From assembly GCA_016218825.1 (NCBI GenBank), contig JACRCV010000015.1, positions 62,001-126,000 of the forward strand: a DNA stretch of 64,000 nt. The letters run 5' to 3'. Below the pieces are notes generated by a model that saw only the letters and a list, made by a program, of their open reading frames with translations, did no database searches and had not been told where the DNA came from. Positions 17,085-26,710 of this stretch are shown in pieces (the first letter of the stretch is position 1; every line of letters begins with the position of its first letter). The DNA is from Deltaproteobacteria bacterium (lineage in GTDB: Bacteria > Myxococcota > XYA12-FULL-58-9). The translations under genes were made by a program, and so were the position numbers.

Positions 17085-17170
17085 CCGATGTTTCGCGCAC
17101 CCGGGCCGCGCCGATGCCGAAAATCCGCAGGTATTCTTCTGTGGGCACCCTTTTGTGATCGGGGTTGTCG

Positions 17171-18784
17171 ATGTTGGCATTTTGTCTTTCCTTCGGGCTG
17201 ACCGCGGTCGTGGCCGGCGTGGACGTCGCGGACATTCAAGCGCAGATCCAGGCGCAGGGCCTCTCGTGGCAGGCCGGAAAGACCTGGGTGACCGAGCTGC
17301 CGGATGAAGAGCGGGCGCGGCTGATGCTGCCGCCCGGCGAGCATCCGCTGTCGCGCCAGGTGCGGACACGGGTCGAGCTCGGCGCCGAGGCCTCGCGACC
17401 GGTCGGCCGGCCGGCGATGTTGGCAACGCTGCCGCTCGCCCTCGACTGGCGGGCGCTCGCTCCCGACGGCTACAACTGGCTGCCGCCGGTGCGCAACCAG
17501 GGGAGCTGCGGCTCATGCTGGGACTTCGCGACCGTCGGCGCGGTCGAAGGGCTCTGGGGCTATCGCCGCGCGACCCCCGACCCGGTCATCGACCTCTCGG
17601 AGCAGCAGCTCCTGGACTGCGCCCAGACCACCTTCGGATGCGACTCCGGCGGCATCACCTGGGACATCAACATCCCGATCCTCGGCTACCGGATCACCGG
17701 CCCGGGCTCGTACATGAAGGGCACCGGCCTCACCTCGGAGAGCTGCTATCCGTACACCTCGGGCGGGACCGGCACCCGAGGCACCTGCACCGATCCGGCG
17801 ACGCTCTCCCCCGCCTGCCAGGCGGCGATCCTCAAGTCCGGGGACGAGACGCCGCTCAGCTCGACGCTTCCGACCGACGGCTTTCCGTGGGATCCGACGT
17901 CGTTCACCCTGACGCCGGACGAGATGGACGAGATCAAGGCCTACCTGCAGGAGCGGCCGGTGGGCGTGTCGATGCGCGCCTACAGTGACCTCTCCGCGTA
18001 TCACTCGGGGGTCTACGAGCCCACCGCCAACCCCGGCGGCTACGGGCTGCACGCGGTCGTGCTCGTCGGCTACAACGACGCCGAGGGCGCTTGGATCGTG
18101 CGCAACTCGTGGGGCGCTTCGTGGGGCGAGAACGGCTACTTCCGGATCAAGTACAACACCTCGCTCATCGGCATGTACGCGTTCGTCTACGGCCTGGATG
18201 AAGAGCGCAAAGACCCGGCGTTTTGCCCTTCGCTGCCGGTCGAGGTGCGGGTGAACGCGACCAACACCGCCCAGAAGAGCAACCTGACGATCGCCAACTG
18301 CGGCAGCGGCGTTTTGCACTGGCAGGCGAGCGTCGGCTCTTGGATCGCCTTCGAGACCGACGCCGGCGTTGCGGTCACGAGCGGCGCCGAGCTCGCTGCC
18401 GGCACGACGTACAAGGTCCGCGCCAAGCAGGCGGTGGCGGTGGGGACCGCGGGGAGCATCACCCTCACCGGGGCACCGAACGGGCCGGTGACGATCGCGA
18501 TCACGACCGCCGACGCGCCGGCGCCCGATGGCGGGCCCCGCACAGACGGCGGCCCGCGCCACGACGGTGGCAGCCTCGGGGACGACGACCAGGTGCTGGC
18601 CGGCGATCCGCGGGCTCCCGGTGACGGGCAGCTACGTGGCGACGGCGCCGATCTCGTGGATGACGGCGGCGATCCGGGGGGCTGCGCTTGTCGGGGGGGC
18701 GGCGGCGCGACGGTGCTCGCGCTGCTCGGCCCCCTCTGGCTCGTGCTGCGGCGCTCGCGACGGCCGGTCCGACCGAGCGGCTAG
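17171..18784 (+). CDS. Secreted papain-family (C1A) cysteine protease with MYXO-CTERM-like tail
   Basis: A 537-residue secreted protease. The ATG at 17171 (GGGG 6 bases upstream) gives a signal peptide; a TTG two codons earlier is also possible. The peptidase domain has oxyanion Gln110, catalytic Cys116 in QGSCGSCWDF, His294 in GLHAVVLVGY and Asn312 in VRNSWGASWG, so it looks active. A beta-rich region (about 350-450) and an Asp/Gly-rich linker follow. The end is GGCACRGGGG, one membrane span and an Arg-rich tip, as in MYXO-CTERM sorting signals, which implies export and surface processing. It appears monocistronic, with a G-rich repeat after its stop. Confidence 0.92.
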   Translation: MLAFCLSFGLTAVVAGVDVADIQAQIQAQGLSWQAGKTWVTELPDEERARLMLPPGEHPLSRQVRTRVELGAEASRPVGRPAMLATLPLALDWRALAPDGYNWLPPVRNQGSCGSCWDFATVGAVEGLWGYRRATPDPVIDLSEQQLLDCAQTTFGCDSGGITWDINIPILGYRITGPGSYMKGTGLTSESCYPYTSGGTGTRGTCTDPATLSPACQAAILKSGDETPLSSTLPTDGFPWDPTSFTLTPDEMDEIKAYLQERPVGVSMRAYSDLSAYHSGVYEPTANPGGYGLHAVVLVGYNDAEGAWIVRNSWGASWGENGYFRIKYNTSLIGMYAFVYGLDEERKDPAFCPSLPVEVRVNATNTAQKSNLTIANCGSGVLHWQASVGSWIAFETDAGVAVTSGAELAAGTTYKVRAKQAVAVGTAGSITLTGAPNGPVTIAITTADAPAPDGGPRTDGGPRHDGGSLGDDDQVLAGDPRAPGDGQLRGDGADLVDDGGDPGGCACRGGGGATVLALLGPLWLVLRRSRRPVRPSG

Positions 18785-18976: not shown

Positions 18977-19024
18977 CCCCCGCGAGGTAAAAAGAGACTG
19001 TCATAAGATATGAGGGAGTCGACA

Positions 19025-20731
19025 ATGGCCATTGATCTGACGACCACCAGGTTGCAGCCGCCCGCCGTCGAGCACGGCGCGCTGGCGGCGGCGCGCCTCC
19101 CCTTCATCCAAGCGAACGACGCCGCGGCGCTCGCGGTCGAGGCCAAGGCGCTGGGCTTCAGGAAGGTCGCCGCCGACCAGTACACCCACGCCGACGGCAG
19201 CTGGCTCGTGATGGCGAACGGCCGCGTCGAGCGCGGCTACCAGGGCGTTCACTTCCGCGGCGTGCCGGTCGATCTCACACAGCTCCCCGTGGCGGCGCCC
19301 GGGGCCTTCGGGAACCGGGCGGCGGTCGCGATGCCGCAGTCGATGCCCAAGGGCGGGCGGGCGGCGTTCAAGACGCTCGCCTTGCGCCATGGCTTCCAGG
19401 AGATCTTGCCGAACTACTTCTCGCACCCCGACGGCAGCTGGGTCGCGATCGTCGACGGCAAGCCGATCCGCGGGATCAACCAGTCGGGGCTGCATCCGAG
19501 CGACGGGCCACAAGCGGCGCCCCGAAGTCCGCGGGCGGCGCGTCCGCCGCGAGCTCCGGCGGGCGGCAGCGCCGGCCGGGCCACCAACCCCGTCGTCGAG
19601 CTGCTCGACAAGGCGATCAACGCCCTGGGTGGACCGCAGGGCGAGGCTGACGCTGCGGCATCGACGCGTGGCGCGCGCCCTCGCAGGGCCGGCAGCCCCG
19701 CGGGGGGCTCCCGGCGGTCGGGGCGCGCGATCGACGACAACACCATCGCAAGCTACCGGCAGGTCGCGCCGAGCTTCGAGGACGGCTTTCTCGCCTGCGC
19801 GCAGCTGCCGTTCTTGGATCCGAACAACCTCGCGGCCGATCGCACCGTCTTCAAGGACGCCGGGTTCAAAGAGAAGGCGCCGGGCTACTTCGAGCACGCG
19901 GACACGAGCTGGGTCTTCTACTCCCAGAACGGCGGCATCGAGCGCGGCGTCGGCAAGCAGGTGTTCCAGGGCGTGCCGATCGGGCCCGGTCGCATGCAGC
20001 AGGCGACCCCCGGGTTCGCGGAGATGGGCCTCGCGGTCGCGGCCCCCGAGCTCGCCGGGATCAACGCTGCGAAGATCACCGCGAGCGACAAGGTGCTCCT
20101 CGACCTCGGCTTCAAGAAGATCACGGGCGCCTACTACAGTCACGCCGACGGCAGCTTCGTCGCCTTCGTCTCCGGCAAGCCGCGTTTCGGCAACCAGGGC
20201 GTGGTCTTCGACGCGCAGCCGGGCATCGGCGGGATGGCGAAGATCAAGAGCAACGAAGCCCACGTCTGGCTGGCGGTGGCGCAGACCGGCAGCCTCAAGG
20301 CCGATGACGCTCGTCTCGGCGAGAAGCTCGAGGCCCTCGGGTTCGCGGCCGCCGGCAGCGGCGTCTACAGTCACCCCGACACGAGCTTCGTGGCGGTCGT
20401 CGGCGGGCAGCTGGTCCGGGGGGTCGGCGGCGAGGTGTTGACCGACCTGCCGAAGGCGCCGAAGGCCGGCAGCGTACGCCAGTACAACGCGCTGCCGTCG
20501 AATACCTGGTCCTGGTGGCAGCAGAACACCGCGCTCGGGCGCCTGCCGATCATCGGCAACGACTCGAACGGCCGGGCGGTCTTGGAGCAGGCCGGTTTCC
20601 GCAAGGTGTCGGCGGCTGGCGGCGTCGAACGTTGGCAGCACAAAGACGGTAGCTGGGCGGAGCTCGACGGTGGCGTGCGCTGTGGTTGGCAGAAGTGGGA
20701 GCTCGGAGAGCTGCCGTTCCAGCGCAGCTGA
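19025..20731 (+). CDS. Six-repeat protein of unknown family (gene 1 of the AAA+/kelch operon)
   Basis: A 568-residue protein with no signal peptide or membrane span. The start at 19025 has GAGGGA upstream; an ATG 15 bases earlier is less likely. It has about six repeats of 65-75 residues with the consensus LGF-K-(x4-8)-Y-x-H-x-D-G-S-W-V-A-x-(V)-x-G-x-x-x-R-G. Clear examples are YTHADGSWLVMANG, YFSHPDGSWVAIVDG, YFEHADTSWVFYSQNG, YYSHADGSFVAFVSG and YSHPDTSFVAVVGG. A Pro/Ala/Arg-rich linker of about 75 residues separates repeats 1-2 from 3-6. I do not recognise the repeat. It is the first gene of a tight four-gene operon. Confidence 0.85.
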   Translation: MAIDLTTTRLQPPAVEHGALAAARLPFIQANDAAALAVEAKALGFRKVAADQYTHADGSWLVMANGRVERGYQGVHFRGVPVDLTQLPVAAPGAFGNRAAVAMPQSMPKGGRAAFKTLALRHGFQEILPNYFSHPDGSWVAIVDGKPIRGINQSGLHPSDGPQAAPRSPRAARPPRAPAGGSAGRATNPVVELLDKAINALGGPQGEADAAASTRGARPRRAGSPAGGSRRSGRAIDDNTIASYRQVAPSFEDGFLACAQLPFLDPNNLAADRTVFKDAGFKEKAPGYFEHADTSWVFYSQNGGIERGVGKQVFQGVPIGPGRMQQATPGFAEMGLAVAAPELAGINAAKITASDKVLLDLGFKKITGAYYSHADGSFVAFVSGKPRFGNQGVVFDAQPGIGGMAKIKSNEAHVWLAVAQTGSLKADDARLGEKLEALGFAAAGSGVYSHPDTSFVAVVGGQLVRGVGGEVLTDLPKAPKAGSVRQYNALPSNTWSWWQQNTALGRLPIIGNDSNGRAVLEQAGFRKVSAAGGVERWQHKDGSWAELDGGVRCGWQKWELGELPFQRS

Positions 20732-20740
20732 GGAGCGACG

Positions 20741-21868
20741 ATGCCGGAGAAGCTGAGCCTCACAGTTCTGCGACAGCTGGCCCCCAAGCAGGTCGTTGCT
20801 GAGGTCGAGGCCGAGCTCGCGAAGGTGTCGGTCGCCAAGCCGGACGCCGATCCGAGCGTCGGGTTGGATCTGGTCACCAAGGTCGTCGCCCGTCTGCATC
20901 CGAGCTCGCAGGAGATGGCGGCGCTGCTCGGGAAGATCGGCGGCCTCGGTGGCGCGGACGGTGCCGATCAGGGCACCGTCGTCGTGGCCGTAGACTTGTC
21001 GCCGGCCGAGTCGTTCTTCGTGAAGACCAGCGACGCGCCGGCCGACCTCCAAGCCGTGAACGCGAAGCTCGCGGAGCTGCTGGCCGATCCGCTGCCGGCG
21101 CCGAGTCCCGCCCCCGAGCCGGTGGCCGCACTGCCGGAGCTGCAGCCGGAGGCAAAGGCGCAGCCGAAACCGGAGCCGCAACCGGAGGCAAAGGCGCAGC
21201 CCAAGCCGCAGCCGAAGGCACAGCCCAAGCCGCAGCCGAAGGCACAGCCCAAGCCGCAGCCGAAGGCGCAGCCCAAGCCGCAGCCGAAGGCACAGCCCAA
21301 GCCGCAGCCGAAGGCGCAGCCCAAGCCGCAGCCGAAGGCACAGCCCAAGCCGCAGCCGAAGGCACAGCCCAAGCCGCAGCCGAAGGCACAGCCCAAGCCG
21401 CAGCCGGCGCGACGGGCGGTGGTTCAGCCGGCAGCGAAGCCGATGCCGGTCCTGGCATCGCAGCCTTACGCCGTGCTGAAACAGAAGTTCTGGCAGAGCA
21501 TGGAGGCGGCGTACGTCGGCGAGGTGGCGCGGCAGCACGGCAGCTTCCAGGCGGCGGAGGCGGCGCGCCTGTGGCACAACCAGGCGGCGGCGAGTCATCT
21601 GCGCGACGTGTATGCCAATCGTGGCCGCTTGCAGGTGCTCAACGTGCCGCAGCTGTTGCGCGCCGTGGGGCTCGACAACTCGGTGTGGCGGCTGCATTAC
21701 AATCCGTTCAAGCAGACGGTGCTCGATCGCTTCGAGCGCGCCTACATCGCCGAGCTATTGGACGAGTGCCGCGGCAACGTCGACCGGGCGGCGGCGGCCG
21801 CGCGCATGTCTTCGAGTGAAATCTGGGCGCTGGTTCGCCAGCACAACCTTCGGGATAAAGTTCGCTAA
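20741..21868 (+). CDS. Lys/Pro/Gln-repeat linker protein with C-terminal Fis-type HTH (gene 2)
   Basis: A 375-residue cytoplasmic protein. The N-terminal part (1-125) is helical and of unknown family. Residues about 130-225 are low complexity, including nine exact 8-residue units (KAQPKPQP). The C-terminus has a Fis/NtrC-type helix-turn-helix (FERAYIAELLDECRGNVDRA then ARMSSSEIWALVRQHNL). A related-looking segment lies before it (SMEAAYVGEVARQHGSFQAA), so two tandem HTH units are possible. It begins 9 bases after gene 1 with GAGGAG upstream. Inference: DNA-binding regulator of the operon, or an adaptor linking the AAA+ proteins to a target. Confidence 0.8.
   Translation: MPEKLSLTVLRQLAPKQVVAEVEAELAKVSVAKPDADPSVGLDLVTKVVARLHPSSQEMAALLGKIGGLGGADGADQGTVVVAVDLSPAESFFVKTSDAPADLQAVNAKLAELLADPLPAPSPAPEPVAALPELQPEAKAQPKPEPQPEAKAQPKPQPKAQPKPQPKAQPKPQPKAQPKPQPKAQPKPQPKAQPKPQPKAQPKPQPKAQPKPQPKAQPKPQPARRAVVQPAAKPMPVLASQPYAVLKQKFWQSMEAAYVGEVARQHGSFQAAEAARLWHNQAAASHLRDVYANRGRLQVLNVPQLLRAVGLDNSVWRLHYNPFKQTVLDRFERAYIAELLDECRGNVDRAAAAARMSSSEIWALVRQHNLRDKVR
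21191..21406 (+). repeat. Nine tandem copies of a 24-bp unit inside gene 2
   Basis: Nine contiguous 24-base units (AAGGCNCAGCCCAAGCCG then CAGCCG) in which only one wobble base varies (G or A). They encode KAQPKPQP. Such near-identical copies imply recent expansion and probable length variation among strains. Confidence 0.95.
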
Positions 21869-21879
21869 GGAGAGCTACG

Positions 21880-24219
21880 ATGCCCATCCAAATCAAGCCC
21901 ACCGGCGTCAAGACCGTCGATCTGTCGTTGTTCTCGGACCAGGCGGAGCAGGTGATCGCCGACCGGCTCGCCCAGGTGAACAACGGCACCCTGACGCTCG
22001 GTGACCTGCAGAAGGCGCACGACGCGGCGCTCGCCGCGAAGGACGGCGACGCCGACATCCTCGCCAACATGCTGCAGGCGGCGAAGAGCGGCAAGCCGTC
22101 CAGCGCCTTCGCCAACCAGGCGACGCTGCGGGTGGCGCAGAACCAGCTCGCCGTCGACAGCGATCCGAAGGCCAAGCAGTTCAAGGCGACGCTCGACCAG
22201 TACGTGATCGGCCAGGACTTCGCGAAGGCGGCCTTGGTGCGCTTCATGATGAGCCGCGACGCCAAGCTCGACAACGCGCCGCTGTCGTTGGGCATCGCCG
22301 GGCCGCCGGGCGTGGGCAAGACCGAGCTGGTGCGCGCGCTCGCCGCGGCGTTCCACGCCGACCCCGAGAAGCACATCTTCGTCGACTGCAGCCAGATCCA
22401 ATCGGGCGCCGACATGAACTCGATCATCGGGGCCCCCCCCGGCTACGTCGGCTTCCAGAAGAAGGGCGACGCGGACGGGGCGGCGGATCTGTCGCAGGCG
22501 GGGGTGCAGGCGAAGTTCGGCGACAAGAAGCCCATCGTCATCCTGCTCGACGAGGTCGACAAGATCGGCATCAACGACCCGACCGGCAACGTCAAGAAGG
22601 AGTTCTGGACCGTCTTCGGCCGCTGCCTGCAGGACGGCAAGCTGACGCTGCGCAACGGCGAGGTGGTCGACTTGTCCGACGCCATCTTCGTGATGACCGG
22701 CAACGCCGGCGCCGACACCGCCGGCGGGCTGCCGAAGGGCGACGCGCAGCGGCGCCACTACATCGCGGCGATGAAGAAGGAGCTGCCGGATTACATCGTC
22801 AGCCGGGTGCCGAACATCACCGCGGCCGACGAGCTCGACCCGGTGCAGACCAAGGCGATCACCGAGCTCAGCCTGAACAGCAAGTTCAAGGTGGCGTGCC
22901 ACAAGGCCAAGCGCGAGCACGGCAAGGACATCGGCTTCAAGGTCGCCGGCCAGGTCTCGGCGTTCTTCGGCCGCATCGGCCTGTCGAAGCAGTACGGCGC
23001 CCGGCCGCTGAAGAACATCCTGCGCCAGCTCCTCGACCCGGTCATCGCCGGCACCATCAAGAGCGCCGGCGACGAGGAGCGCTACGAGCTGCGGCTGAAG
23101 GCCGGGGTCACCGACGTCGAGCTCACGAAGATCGCGGACGCCTTCGCCGCCAAGGCGCCGGCGATCCCCGAGGAGTACGACTCGACGAACTTCCCGGTGG
23201 AGCTGGTGCTCACCAACCCGAAGCCGAAGTTCTACCCCTACGCCGGCGTCATCCCGCACAGCGACACCGGGACGCCTTTCGTCGTCGCGTCCGGGAGCGT
23301 CAGCGGCCGCGGCTACCTGGCGGTGAACAAGGGCGACAAGGGCAGCAAGAACGAGCTCTACTTCGTGCGCGCCGGGGCGACCGAGGCCGCCGACCAGTTC
23401 CAGCCCGTGGCGCTCCCGCCGAAGCTCGCCGACGCCAACTTCACGATGACCGCGGTGACGCTGGACAAGTCCCGGGTGTACTTGTCGGCGATGAACTTGC
23501 CGGCGCAGGGCGGCAAGGCCGAGACCTGCGGCTTCGTCTACGACGCCGACAAGAAGAGCTTCACCGACGTCGGGCCGCTGCCGGAGCCGCTGGTCGGCGC
23601 GGCGATGGGGGCGGTGGCCGGCGACATCATCGCGGTCGGCGGCCGCCTGGCGCTGCACGACGGCCAGAACTGGTCGGTGTCCACCGACCCGTTGGACATG
23701 AACGGCAACCCGCTGCACGATCTCGCCTATCGCTTCAACGGCGCCACCTTGAAGTGGGAGGTGCTGAAGAACGCGCCCAAGGTCACGCGGGCGTTCTCGA
23801 CGGCGCTGGAGCACGAGGGCAAGCTGTGGTTCTTCGGCGGCGAGGAGGTCTACACCACGCCGCAGGGGGTGCGGGTGTCGCGCTCGTCCAGCGAGGTCGA
23901 CGTCTACGACCCCAAGACCGGCAAGTTCACCGCCGGGCCGGCGCTGCCGACCGGGGTGGCGTTCGCGACCGCGTTCAACGACGGCTTCGGTCGCATCCAG
24001 CTCTTGGGCGGCGCGTCGTACATCGACTTCGGCCGCCAGCTCTCGGTGCGCTCGACCATCCTGCGCCTCGATCCGGCGCTCGACGACCCGAAGTGGAAGA
24101 GCAGCGACACGTTGCCGGCGCCGGCGGCGCAGCTCGCGGTGGTGCCGCACGCCGCGGGCGTGGTGGTCGGCCCCTTCGTCAGAGACGACCAGACCCAGGG
24201 CTTCGAGATCCTGCGCTAG
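21880..24219 (+). CDS. ClpB/HSP100-type AAA+ ATPase fused to a kelch-like beta-propeller (gene 3)
   Basis: A 779-residue fusion. Residues 1-95 are a helical lead-in. The AAA_2 module has Walker A GPPGVGKT (141-148), a pore-loop motif GAPPGYVGF with Tyr189, Walker B IVILLDEVDK (Asp224, Glu225), sensor-1 Asn275, a probable arginine finger (Arg309) and a ClpB small subdomain with sensor-2 GAR (Arg375). From about 415 to the end are kelch-like blades (LWFFGGEEVY, VDVYDPKTGKFTAGPALP, IQLLGG). All catalytic residues are present, so ATP-driven threading is plausible, with the propeller recognising substrate. It has the spacing of one ClpB D2 ring and lacks a D1 ring. Found 11 bases after gene 2. Confidence 0.88.
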   Translation: MPIQIKPTGVKTVDLSLFSDQAEQVIADRLAQVNNGTLTLGDLQKAHDAALAAKDGDADILANMLQAAKSGKPSSAFANQATLRVAQNQLAVDSDPKAKQFKATLDQYVIGQDFAKAALVRFMMSRDAKLDNAPLSLGIAGPPGVGKTELVRALAAAFHADPEKHIFVDCSQIQSGADMNSIIGAPPGYVGFQKKGDADGAADLSQAGVQAKFGDKKPIVILLDEVDKIGINDPTGNVKKEFWTVFGRCLQDGKLTLRNGEVVDLSDAIFVMTGNAGADTAGGLPKGDAQRRHYIAAMKKELPDYIVSRVPNITAADELDPVQTKAITELSLNSKFKVACHKAKREHGKDIGFKVAGQVSAFFGRIGLSKQYGARPLKNILRQLLDPVIAGTIKSAGDEERYELRLKAGVTDVELTKIADAFAAKAPAIPEEYDSTNFPVELVLTNPKPKFYPYAGVIPHSDTGTPFVVASGSVSGRGYLAVNKGDKGSKNELYFVRAGATEAADQFQPVALPPKLADANFTMTAVTLDKSRVYLSAMNLPAQGGKAETCGFVYDADKKSFTDVGPLPEPLVGAAMGAVAGDIIAVGGRLALHDGQNWSVSTDPLDMNGNPLHDLAYRFNGATLKWEVLKNAPKVTRAFSTALEHEGKLWFFGGEEVYTTPQGVRVSRSSSEVDVYDPKTGKFTAGPALPTGVAFATAFNDGFGRIQLLGGASYIDFGRQLSVRSTILRLDPALDDPKWKSSDTLPAPAAQLAVVPHAAGVVVGPFVRDDQTQGFEILR

Positions 24220-24228
24220 GGGGCGGCG

Positions 24229-25836
24229 ATGCCAATCAAGGTCAGCTCGCAGACCAAGGCCGACAAGGTCAACCTCGCCGACTATGCCATCCCGGCGGGG
24301 GAGGCCGCCTGGCTGAAGAAGAAGCTCGGGGCGACGTTCTCGTTCGACGAGCTCGACCACCTGGCGATGGCGCAGAACCTGACGGCGGACGAGAAGAAGA
24401 TCGTCGAGGGCATGCGGCGCTCGGTGCTCGGCAACACCCGCGCCGACCAGGGGGTGGTGGCGAGCAAGGACGGCGACGCGCCGCTGTCGACCGTGGTCGC
24501 GATGACGCTCGAGAAGGCCCGGCTGCCGACCGGGGAGCTCGCCGAGCAGCAGAAGCTGCGCGCCGACATGCTGCCGGCGCTCGTCGGCCACGAATCCGAG
24601 CTCGAGAGCTTCGTGCAGATGTTGAAGGACTTCCGCTCGCCGGCGCGGCGCTTCCCGCCGCTGATGGCGCTCGTCGGCGATCCGGCGCACGGCAAGGACC
24701 AGGCGATCACCGGCTACGCGCGCTCGGTGTTCTCTTTGCAGGCCACGGTGCACACGGTGAACCTGAAGGGCGGCGATCCCTTCGCGCCGGGCGGGCCGCT
24801 GTCGCTGCCGGTGCTGCAGGCGCTCGAGAAGTCGGGCGGCGTGGTGCGCGTCCAGGGGGCAGAGGGGCTGCGGGCGAGCGCGCCGGCGGTCGCGGCCAAG
24901 CTCGGCGAGCTCTTGACCGCGGTGAAGGGTGACCCGAACTACGTACGTCTGAACTACATCTTCGACTTCGACGCGGCGCCGGGCACCAACGGCCGGCAGC
25001 TGATGGTCGAGGCCCTCGACTGGGTGGGGAACGCCAACCTCTCGGCGCTCGCGAGCTTCAAGCACCTGGACGGGCCGAGCATGGTCGAGTACGCCAAGCG
25101 CGTGCTCCCGGATCTGCTCGCCGGCGACACCTTGGGCAAGCTCAAGGTCGAGTTCGACGACCAGGCGCTGGCACTCTTGGGCGAGGCGTTGGCGACGCCG
25201 CACAAGCCGCTCGCGGAGCTCGAGGCGCGGCTGCTGCGCTTCGTCATGTCGAAGTTCGACACCCAGACCTCGGTGGACCGCGCCGGCGGCGTGCTGCGGG
25301 TGAGCGTCGAGCCCAAGTTCGCGCTCGACAATGTGGTCCGCAACGAGCGGCTCGCCGCTCTGCACCAGCCGCTCCCCGATCTCTTCAGCGGCGCCGAGCT
25401 CTTCATCATCTACGAGGTGGCGAAGCAGAAGGCGCCGACCGCGGAGCGCGACCTGTTGTTGAAGCACGCCGGGGTGGTGGTCGATCGGCTTTCCAAGCTC
25501 GACGTCGAGCTCACGGCGGTGGCCGGGGACAAGGGGCCGGAGGCCGGTGTCGGGGCGCTCGCCGAGGCGCTGGTCACGCTGCGGCAGGCGATCACGACTG
25601 CGCTCAAGTACGCGACGCAGAGCCACCGGCTGAACCTCGAGCGGCTGGTCCCTGACCGGGAGCTGCAGCCGCTGCAGAGGAGTCTCGCGGCGGCCGAGGC
25701 GGCGTTTGCCGGGGTGGACGCGAAGAAGCTCGGCGCGCGCAACCAACGGTGGGTGAAGGCGCAGGCCGAGGCGAAGGCGTTGATTGATGCCGCGAGGCTG
25801 TTTGCGGCGGGGCTCAGCGCTGATCTGAAGAGCTAG
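24229..25836 (+). CDS. Degenerate ClpB-like AAA+ protein, probable pseudo-ATPase (gene 4)
   Basis: A 535-residue protein paired with gene 3. After a helical N-terminus an AAA+ region begins near 105, in the order LVGHESELESF, then FPPLMALVGDPAHGKD. Its Walker A is GDPAHGKD (150-157) with Asp in place of Ser/Thr. The Walker-B-like strand GVVRVQGAEG has Gln-Gly where Asp-Glu is expected. The pore region GDPFAPGGP lacks the aromatic residue, and sensor-1 reads FDFD. The C-terminus is helical. It is therefore probably an inactive AAA+ subunit that structures or regulates the active gene 3 ring. It starts 9 bases after gene 3. The homology is by pattern and needs a structural comparison. Confidence 0.75.
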   Translation: MPIKVSSQTKADKVNLADYAIPAGEAAWLKKKLGATFSFDELDHLAMAQNLTADEKKIVEGMRRSVLGNTRADQGVVASKDGDAPLSTVVAMTLEKARLPTGELAEQQKLRADMLPALVGHESELESFVQMLKDFRSPARRFPPLMALVGDPAHGKDQAITGYARSVFSLQATVHTVNLKGGDPFAPGGPLSLPVLQALEKSGGVVRVQGAEGLRASAPAVAAKLGELLTAVKGDPNYVRLNYIFDFDAAPGTNGRQLMVEALDWVGNANLSALASFKHLDGPSMVEYAKRVLPDLLAGDTLGKLKVEFDDQALALLGEALATPHKPLAELEARLLRFVMSKFDTQTSVDRAGGVLRVSVEPKFALDNVVRNERLAALHQPLPDLFSGAELFIIYEVAKQKAPTAERDLLLKHAGVVVDRLSKLDVELTAVAGDKGPEAGVGALAEALVTLRQAITTALKYATQSHRLNLERLVPDRELQPLQRSLAAAEAAFAGVDAKKLGARNQRWVKAQAEAKALIDAARLFAAGLSADLKS

Positions 25837-26284: not shown

Positions 26285-26710
26285 ATGTTTACACATGACT
26301 GCGGGAGGAGCGGGCGTTCGTTTGACCCGTGGCGCGAGCTCAACCGGGTGCAAGAGGACCTGAACCGGTTCTTCGCCGGGGCGAAGGGCGATTATCCGCC
26401 GGTGAACGTCTATTCGAACGAGCAGGGGTTGGTGTTGACCGCGGATTTGCCGGGGGTGGACGGCAAGGAGCTGGACGTGACGGTGCTCGCGGAGTCGGTG
26501 ACGTTGAAGGGCAAGGTGGGCGAGCCGGCGGTGGAAGGGGCGAGCTGTTCGCGCCGGGAGCGCTTCACCGGTGACTTCAACCGAACGCTCGAGCTGCCAC
26601 TCAGAGTCGATCCCGAGCACGCGGTCGCCGACTTCAAGAACGGCGTGTTGTCGTTGACGTTGCCGCGCGCCGAGGGCGCGAAGGCCCGCAAGATCAACGT
26701 CCAGCCGTAG
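26285..26710 (+). CDS. Hsp20-family small heat-shock protein
   Basis: A 141-residue small chaperone. After a short N-terminus (FDPWRELNRVQEDLNRFF) comes the alpha-crystallin domain, from YPPVNVYSNEQGLVLTADLPGVDGKELDVTV to the hallmark ADFKNGVLSLTLPR. It ends in a basic tail with KINVQP. Such proteins hold unfolding proteins for refolding by ATP-dependent chaperones. GAGGAGGAG lies 6 bases before the start, and a sigma32-like promoter is upstream. It is next to, but not within, the AAA+/kelch operon. Confidence 0.94.
   Translation: MFTHDCGRSGRSFDPWRELNRVQEDLNRFFAGAKGDYPPVNVYSNEQGLVLTADLPGVDGKELDVTVLAESVTLKGKVGEPAVEGASCSRRERFTGDFNRTLELPLRVDPEHAVADFKNGVLSLTLPRAEGAKARKINVQP

What the first reader, a model, noticed from the sequence alone, without database searches (positions are those of the whole stretch)
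21880..24219. ClpB-like AAA+ ring ATPase with a C-terminal kelch propeller
The ATPase half keeps Walker A, Walker B, sensor 1, arginine finger, sensor 2 and the pore-loop GYVG tyrosine, so threading activity is plausible. A kelch-like propeller in place of the usual ClpB N-domain or middle domain would be an unusual way to choose substrates.
Basis: partly seen in the sequence, partly recalled or inferred. Interest (0 to 1): 0.7.

Follow-up and report, generated by a model that had tools for sequence, protein, structure and literature searches.

The report
Clp-type ATPase fused to kelch propeller
A rare bacterial gene joins one ATP-driven protein-threading motor of the ClpB type to a kelch beta-propeller, a docking module; the join is old, since a distant relative keeps it with a neighbouring gene, but what the motor acts on is unknown.

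Summary
ORF 21880-24219 (779 aa) carries one HSP100 AAA+ module of the ClpB second-ring type with all catalytic motifs. It models as ClpB NBD2 (pLDDT 78; TM to 4lj7 0.82). At least four tandem kelch blades follow (hhalign P 0.0034 to 2e-8; none of 60 shuffles below 0.048). The Clp N-domain, first ring, M-domain and ClpP loop are missing, so it is not a ClpB; the propeller is added at the C-terminus rather than replacing a domain in place. The fusion is not an accident: a 36%-identical full-length protein lies in another family of the same phylum (G064), near a homologue of the window's downstream gene 24229-25836, a probable divergent AAA+ partner. It is very rare: 2 full-length copies in 195 phylum genomes, and no kelch in 139 Clp-like frames checked. 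Best reading: a one-ring, protease-independent protein-remodelling ATPase whose propeller docks clients or partners, laid out like human SKD3/CLPB (ankyrin repeats plus one ring). Clients are unknown. The genome has a real type III secretion system, but a link is not shown.

The parts
21880..24219 (+). AAA+-kelch fusion protein, 779 aa
   Evidence: full-length homologue in G064
21940..22086 (+). small N-terminal helical region, residues 21-69 (three predicted helices); no family match
   Evidence: model (local pLDDT about 45-65, so tentative)
22168..22788 (+). AAA+ large subdomain, residues 97-303, HSP100 D2 type
   Evidence: Pfam AAA_2, NCBIfam ClpB/ClpA/ClpV D2 regions, fold match to ClpB NBD2
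22300..22323 (+). Walker A GPPGVGKT, residues 141-148
22441..22452 (+). pore loop GYVG, residues 188-191
22549..22554 (+). Walker B Asp224-Glu225
22702..22704 (+). sensor 1 Asn275
   Evidence: invariant column
22804..22806 (+). arginine finger Arg309
   Evidence: invariant column
22909..23058 (+). ClpB_D2-small lid, residues 344-393, with sensor 2 Arg375
   Evidence: (PF10431)
23449..23568 (+). kelch blade, residues 524-563 (weak)
   Evidence: P 0.0034; control
23602..23763 (+). kelch blade, residues 575-628 (weak)
   Evidence: P 0.0029; control
23788..23934 (+). kelch blade, residues 637-685 (strong)
   Evidence: Pfam Kelch_6/Kelch_3/Kelch_1, P 1.9e-8
23986..24099 (+). kelch blade, residues 703-740
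   Evidence: P 2.1e-4
24229..25836 (+). conserved partner gene, 535 aa, 9 bp downstream; probable divergent AAA+ with a damaged Walker A (GDPAHGKD) here and an intact one (GGPGHGKS) in G064
   Evidence: 33% identical homologue near the G064 fusion gene; profile match to the AAA part of the fusion, E 5.7e-5, prob 66%
19010..20731 (+). upstream gene of the same run: repeats of 'LGF..Y.HPDGSWV' type; paralogues found only in this genome among those searched
20741..21868 (+). upstream gene of the same run: Pro/Lys/Gln-rich repeat linker and weak Fis-type helix-turn-helix at the C-terminus
   Evidence: (HTH_8 0.0025, below cut-off)

Best explanation
A stand-alone, one-ring HSP100-type remodelling ATPase. 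Six copies (inferred) form a ring; ATP turnover moves the GYVG pore loops and pulls a client polypeptide through or partly through the pore. The C-terminal kelch propeller docks a client or an adaptor, the kind of job that ankyrin repeats do for human SKD3/CLPB and N-domains do for ClpB. It probably does not feed ClpP, because the IGL/IGF loop is missing. The gene 24229-25836, next in the same run, encodes a divergent AAA+ partner, possibly a regulatory or mixed-ring subunit. Shown: architecture, intact catalytic motifs, conservation of the fusion and of the gene pair. Inferred: co-transcription, hexamer, threading, docking role, partner role. Unknown: client.
For: All ATPase and pore-loop residues are kept in both the window protein and its 36% homologue. 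The model of residues 1-412 matches ClpB NBD2 crystal structures (TM by target 0.82 for 4lj7_A). The two fusion proteins form one clade (99/97) on the HSP100 side of a tree, away from ClpX. Four kelch blades with shuffle control. Both genomes keep the AAA+-like partner next to the fusion, directly in the window and one gene away in G064. Precedent for one HSP100 ring plus a repeat domain: human CLPB, in which changes in the ankyrin domain impair disaggregase activity (PMC9934407).
Against: No biochemical evidence. The stem of the fusion clade is long (3.5 changes per site), so the function may have shifted from unfolding to switch-like remodelling. A stand-alone kelch half in G002 suggests the propeller can work, or decay, without the motor. 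Very narrow distribution argues against a general housekeeping disaggregase. The full-length single-sequence structure prediction was useless (pLDDT 36), so the propeller rests on sequence profiles.
Confidence: 0.6

Rival explanations
1. The operon encodes proteins handled by, or injected through, the genome's type III secretion system, and the AAA+-kelch protein is an effector or an effector-specific chaperone rather than a general remodelling factor.
For: The genome has a true T3SS: SctV 842 bits against a cut-off of 692, and an LcrH/SycD translocator chaperone 137 against 104.8, beside an SseC-like protein. All three genomes with a copy have this SctV. In G002 the kelch half lies about 1.4 kb from the 3' end of a gene whose homologue in G000 heads the translocon-like operon. 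The upstream repeat gene has paralogues in a cluster of effector-like enzymes.
Against: FHIPEP genes match in 161 of 195 phylum genomes and SctV-type ones are very common there, so co-occurrence says little. No T3SS gene, chaperone family or signal was found in the window operon. A shared N-terminal motif between the fusion and its partner failed a shuffle test (7 of 100 shuffles as good).
Confidence: 0.2
2. A conflict (defence) module related in spirit to the MoxR-vWA-beta-propeller ternary systems.
For: AAA+, propeller and, in G064, a vWA-looking protein between the fusion and the partner (sequence read by eye). Partial PADLOC matches of the ATPase part to PDC-M37B (1.8e-13) and DolB (2.9e-11). 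Patchy distribution.
Against: The ATPase is HSP100 D2, not MoxR. In the published system the propeller is fused to the vWA protein (PMC7159879), not to the ATPase. No bpX propeller family match. The vWA-like protein has no Pfam or PDB match and has no counterpart in the window operon. The PADLOC matches cover only the generic AAA region.
Confidence: 0.1
3. A ClpP-type unfoldase that selects substrates for degradation by the kelch propeller, like a one-chain E3-style degrader.
For: Same ATPase superfamily as ClpA and ClpX; kelch is a common substrate receptor in eukaryotic ubiquitin ligases (general knowledge).
Against: No IGL/IGF ClpP loop in the right place; the only IGF (residues 351-353) lies in the lid and is not conserved in the homologue (alignment). 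No ClpP-type peptidase in the operon; the papain-type gene upstream (17165-18784) is separate.
Confidence: 0.04
4. Annotation artefact or chance fusion by frameshift or assembly error.
For: The copy in G002 is kelch only.
Against: The same fusion in an unrelated assembly at 36% identity over 61-771, with a homologous neighbour.
Confidence: 0.01

Closest known systems
ClpB / Hsp104 (HSP100 disaggregases), second AAA ring
   Same: AAA+ D2 fold, Walker A/B, sensors, arginine finger, GYVG pore loop, D2-small lid; ClpB NBD2 structures are among the best fold matches
   Different: No Clp N-domain, first ring or M-domain; kelch propeller added; only about 30% identical; below every NCBIfam Clp cut-off
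SKD3 / human CLPB (ankyrin repeats plus one HSP100 ring)
   Same: One D2-type ring plus a protein-binding repeat domain in one chain (PMC9934407; PDB sequence matches)
   Different: Ankyrin and N-terminal there, kelch and C-terminal here; no common origin of the two fusions is indicated
MoxR-vWA-beta-propeller ternary systems (PMC7159879)
   Same: AAA+ motor and propeller in one gene set; vWA-looking neighbour in G064
   Different: Different AAA+ clade; propeller on the ATPase rather than on the vWA protein; no bpX match
Kelch propellers (Keap1, KLHL, NanM)
   Same: Kelch motif blades; Pfam Kelch_6, Kelch_3, Kelch_1; designed SAKe6 propellers lead the PDB sequence matches, with Keap1 among them
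   Different: Divergent blades; only four detected; fused to a Clp-type motor

Membership tests
HSP100/Clp AAA+ superfamily (D2-type module) | Walker A, Walker B, sensor 1, arginine finger, sensor 2, ClpB D2-small lid | tested here: met
HSP100/Clp AAA+ superfamily (D2-type module) | Fold of ClpB NBD2 | tested here: met
   (model built on an alignment of Clp-like rows, pLDDT 78)
ClpB disaggregase | Two AAA rings, Clp N-domain, M-domain | tested here: not met
   Only one AAA module; no Clp_N or M-domain match (102 bits against the ClpB cut-off of 1232)
ClpB disaggregase | Rescue of aggregated protein with DnaK | not testable with these tools
   needs biochemistry
ClpP-partner unfoldase (ClpA/ClpC/ClpX) | Conserved IGL/IGF loop before the arginine finger | tested here: not met
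   no such tripeptide between Walker B and R309 in either protein, by reading the alignment
Kelch propeller | Several tandem kelch blades beyond chance | tested here: met
   four blades, shuffle control
Kelch propeller | Closed ring of five to seven blades | tested here: inconclusive
   four blades seen; end blades inferred; single-sequence model uninformative
MoxR-vWA-beta-propeller ternary system | MoxR AAA+ and vWA-propeller fusion (bpX) | tested here: not met
   description in PMC7159879
T3SS effector or T3SS chaperone | T3SS signal, cognate chaperone or known family | tested here: inconclusive
   no family match; T3SS present in the genome

The most novel reading that the evidence does not exclude
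A separate lineage of one-ring HSP100 motors in which a kelch propeller supplies client recognition and a degenerate AAA+ paralogue supplies a second, regulatory ring or mixed subunit: a two-gene remodelling machine distinct from ClpB, ClpX, SKD3 and the MoxR-vWA systems, possibly serving secreted-protein handling in a type III secretion-bearing, possibly predatory, bacterium.
Probability: 0.3. Interest if true: 0.7.

Novelty: new variant of a known kind. Interest (0 to 1): 0.5.

Why it matters
Clp-type motors choose clients through add-on domains. A kelch propeller on such a motor was not found in the families and papers searched here, and it gives a natural test of whether a generic protein-docking propeller can re-aim an unfoldase. 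The conserved, partly degenerate AAA+ neighbour also offers a case of a motor and a decaying paralogue evolving as a pair.

Tried and rejected
Chance or assembly fusion: rejected by the G064 homologue. Phage or plasmid origin: phage hits cover only the AAA part, no plasmid hit, viral scans with the kelch and partner profiles empty. Common fusion elsewhere: no kelch in 139 Clp-like frames, with positive control; the four kelch hits in 40 genomes reached through named loci scored far below the orthologues (not followed further). Shared N-terminal domain between fusion and partner: not significant. T3SS association by co-occurrence: uninformative because FHIPEP/SctV genes are so common in the phylum. 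The genome-contig scan picked up mostly ClpX and was of no use for distribution. Single-sequence structure prediction of the whole protein failed (pLDDT 36). The propeller was not predicted with an alignment because its only homologues came from genome searches, which are outside the structure tool's stated list of allowed sources. Other phyla could not be used as a centre in the genome search. Literature searches for a kelch-Clp fusion found none.

Full report
What is there. The ORF at 21880-24219 (+) is a 779-residue protein with coding-type base composition. It stands third in a tight run of four same-strand genes, 19010-20731, 20741-21868, 21880-24219 and 24229-25836, with gaps of 9 to 11 bases. 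Pfam finds AAA_2 at 137-303, ClpB_D2-small at 344-393 and kelch motifs at 639-692. NCBIfam sees only the second-ring part of ClpB, ClpA and ClpV, far below their cut-offs. Sequence matches in the PDB are ClpB, Hsp104, ClpC and human CLPB rings.

The motor half. Aligned with Clp D2 modules from the same phylum, the protein keeps Walker A GPPGVGKT (141-148), GYVG (188-191), Walker B D224/E225, sensor 1 N275, arginine finger R309 and sensor 2 R375. An AlphaFold2 model of residues 1-412, made with 57 Clp-like rows from viral contigs, reached pLDDT 78 with the AAA core mostly above 85. Foldseek returned Clp proteins, with ClpB NBD2 crystal structures among the top matches (4lj7_A, TM by target 0.82). 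A maximum-likelihood tree puts the window protein and its homologue together (99/97) on the HSP100 side, on a long stem, apart from ClpX. There is no first ring, Clp N-domain or M-domain, and no IGL/IGF loop for ClpP between Walker B and the arginine finger. So it works like an HSP100 ring by its parts, but it is not a member of ClpB.

The kelch half. A blade profile was built from kelch proteins of other genomes in the phylum (seeded with the window's strongest blade, the members themselves taken from other proteins). Against the profile of the three homologues it matched four successive, non-overlapping stretches: residues 524-563, 575-628, 637-685 and 703-740, P 0.0034, 0.0029, 1.9e-8 and 2.1e-4; the next match had P 0.6. 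In 60 column-shuffled controls no match was below P 0.048. Leftover sequence on both sides could hold one or two more blades, giving five or six in all; that is inference. The single-sequence model of the whole protein had pLDDT 36 and says nothing.

Conservation. A full-length homologue lies in G064, another family of the same phylum: 36% identity over 61-771. There the gene is followed by a 321-aa protein that looks like a vWA domain by eye (no Pfam or PDB match) and then by a 33% homologue of the window's next gene. That next gene shows a weak profile similarity to the AAA part of the fusion (E 5.7e-5, prob 66%); its Walker A is damaged in the window (GDPAHGKD) and intact in G064 (GGPGHGKS). 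It is not found in the other 193 phylum genomes searched. In G002, a relative of the same family as the window genome, only a stand-alone kelch half was found; a tblastn of that contig found no AAA remnant beside it. Only 2 full-length copies were found in 195 phylum genomes. Of 139 Clp-like open frames in fetched loci, none carries a kelch blade, while the two fusion proteins do. Phage, plasmid and viral collections gave nothing for the kelch half or the partner where these were searched.

How it most likely works. Shown: intact motor motifs, propeller blades, old fusion, conserved neighbour. Inferred: hexameric ring, pore-loop threading, docking of a client or adaptor by the propeller, and a partner or regulatory role for the divergent AAA+ neighbour. 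The layout echoes human CLPB/SKD3, where one HSP100 ring carries ankyrin repeats whose alteration impairs disaggregase activity (PMC9934407). The client is unknown.

Wider setting. The genome holds a true type III secretion system (SctV and LcrH/SycD above NCBIfam cut-offs; SseC-like protein). The upstream repeat gene 19010-20731 has paralogues only in this genome among 58 searched, several within a cluster of effector-like enzymes on contig C54. In G002 the kelch-only gene lies near the end of a gene whose homologue heads the translocon-like operon in the window's genome. These are hints, not proof: SctV-type genes are very common in the phylum, and a proposed shared N-terminal motif failed a shuffle test. 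The needleless T3SS* of Myxococcus (PMC12075869) is background only. That the phylum is Myxococcota is my inference from genome sizes and family hits; the tool names no taxon.

Verdict. A real, rare and conserved new architecture of a known motor kind.

Noticed in passing
26285-26710 (+): HSP20 small heat-shock protein 449 bp downstream of the operon; by eye CTTGACA-N12-CCCCTAGG before it resembles a heat-shock promoter, though an exact scan for the consensus found none.
   Followed up: partly
G000 C66:120376-122394 (L137:9708-11930) and C5 (L160:11789-19380): True type III secretion genes: SctV and LcrH/SycD chaperone above NCBIfam cut-offs, SseC-like translocator, tip-like protein; SctV is 85-93% identical across related families, far more conserved than the flagellar FlhA.
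   Followed up: partly
G000 C54:40578-60943 (L176, L177): Cluster of enzyme-like proteins with odd N-terminal tails (pyruvate kinase barrel, starch-synthase type, CYTH, HD by eye, poly-A polymerase head plus repeats) and a DcrB-like protein; looks like a set of secreted effectors.
   Followed up: partly
19010-20731 and G000 C54, C116, C16: Repeat family 'LGF..Y.HPDGSWV' with a common C-terminal 'GWQKW.LG.LPYNNR' end, found in 14 places in this genome and in none of 57 others searched.
   Followed up: partly
L137:7492-8340: Chagasin-like (I42) cysteine-protease inhibitor domain (below Pfam cut-off) near SctV, while the window holds a papain-type protease at 17165-18784.
   Followed up: no
G000 C98, C99 (L003, L002): The genome search found ClpA and a divergent ClpB-like protein (657 bits against a cut-off of 1232) but no canonical ClpB; may be a gap in the assembly.
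   Followed up: partly
20741-21868: Protein with a long PKAQPKPQ-type repeat linker and a weak Fis-type helix-turn-helix end; C116:9447-10547 has a similar linker but ends in the 19010-type module.
   Followed up: no
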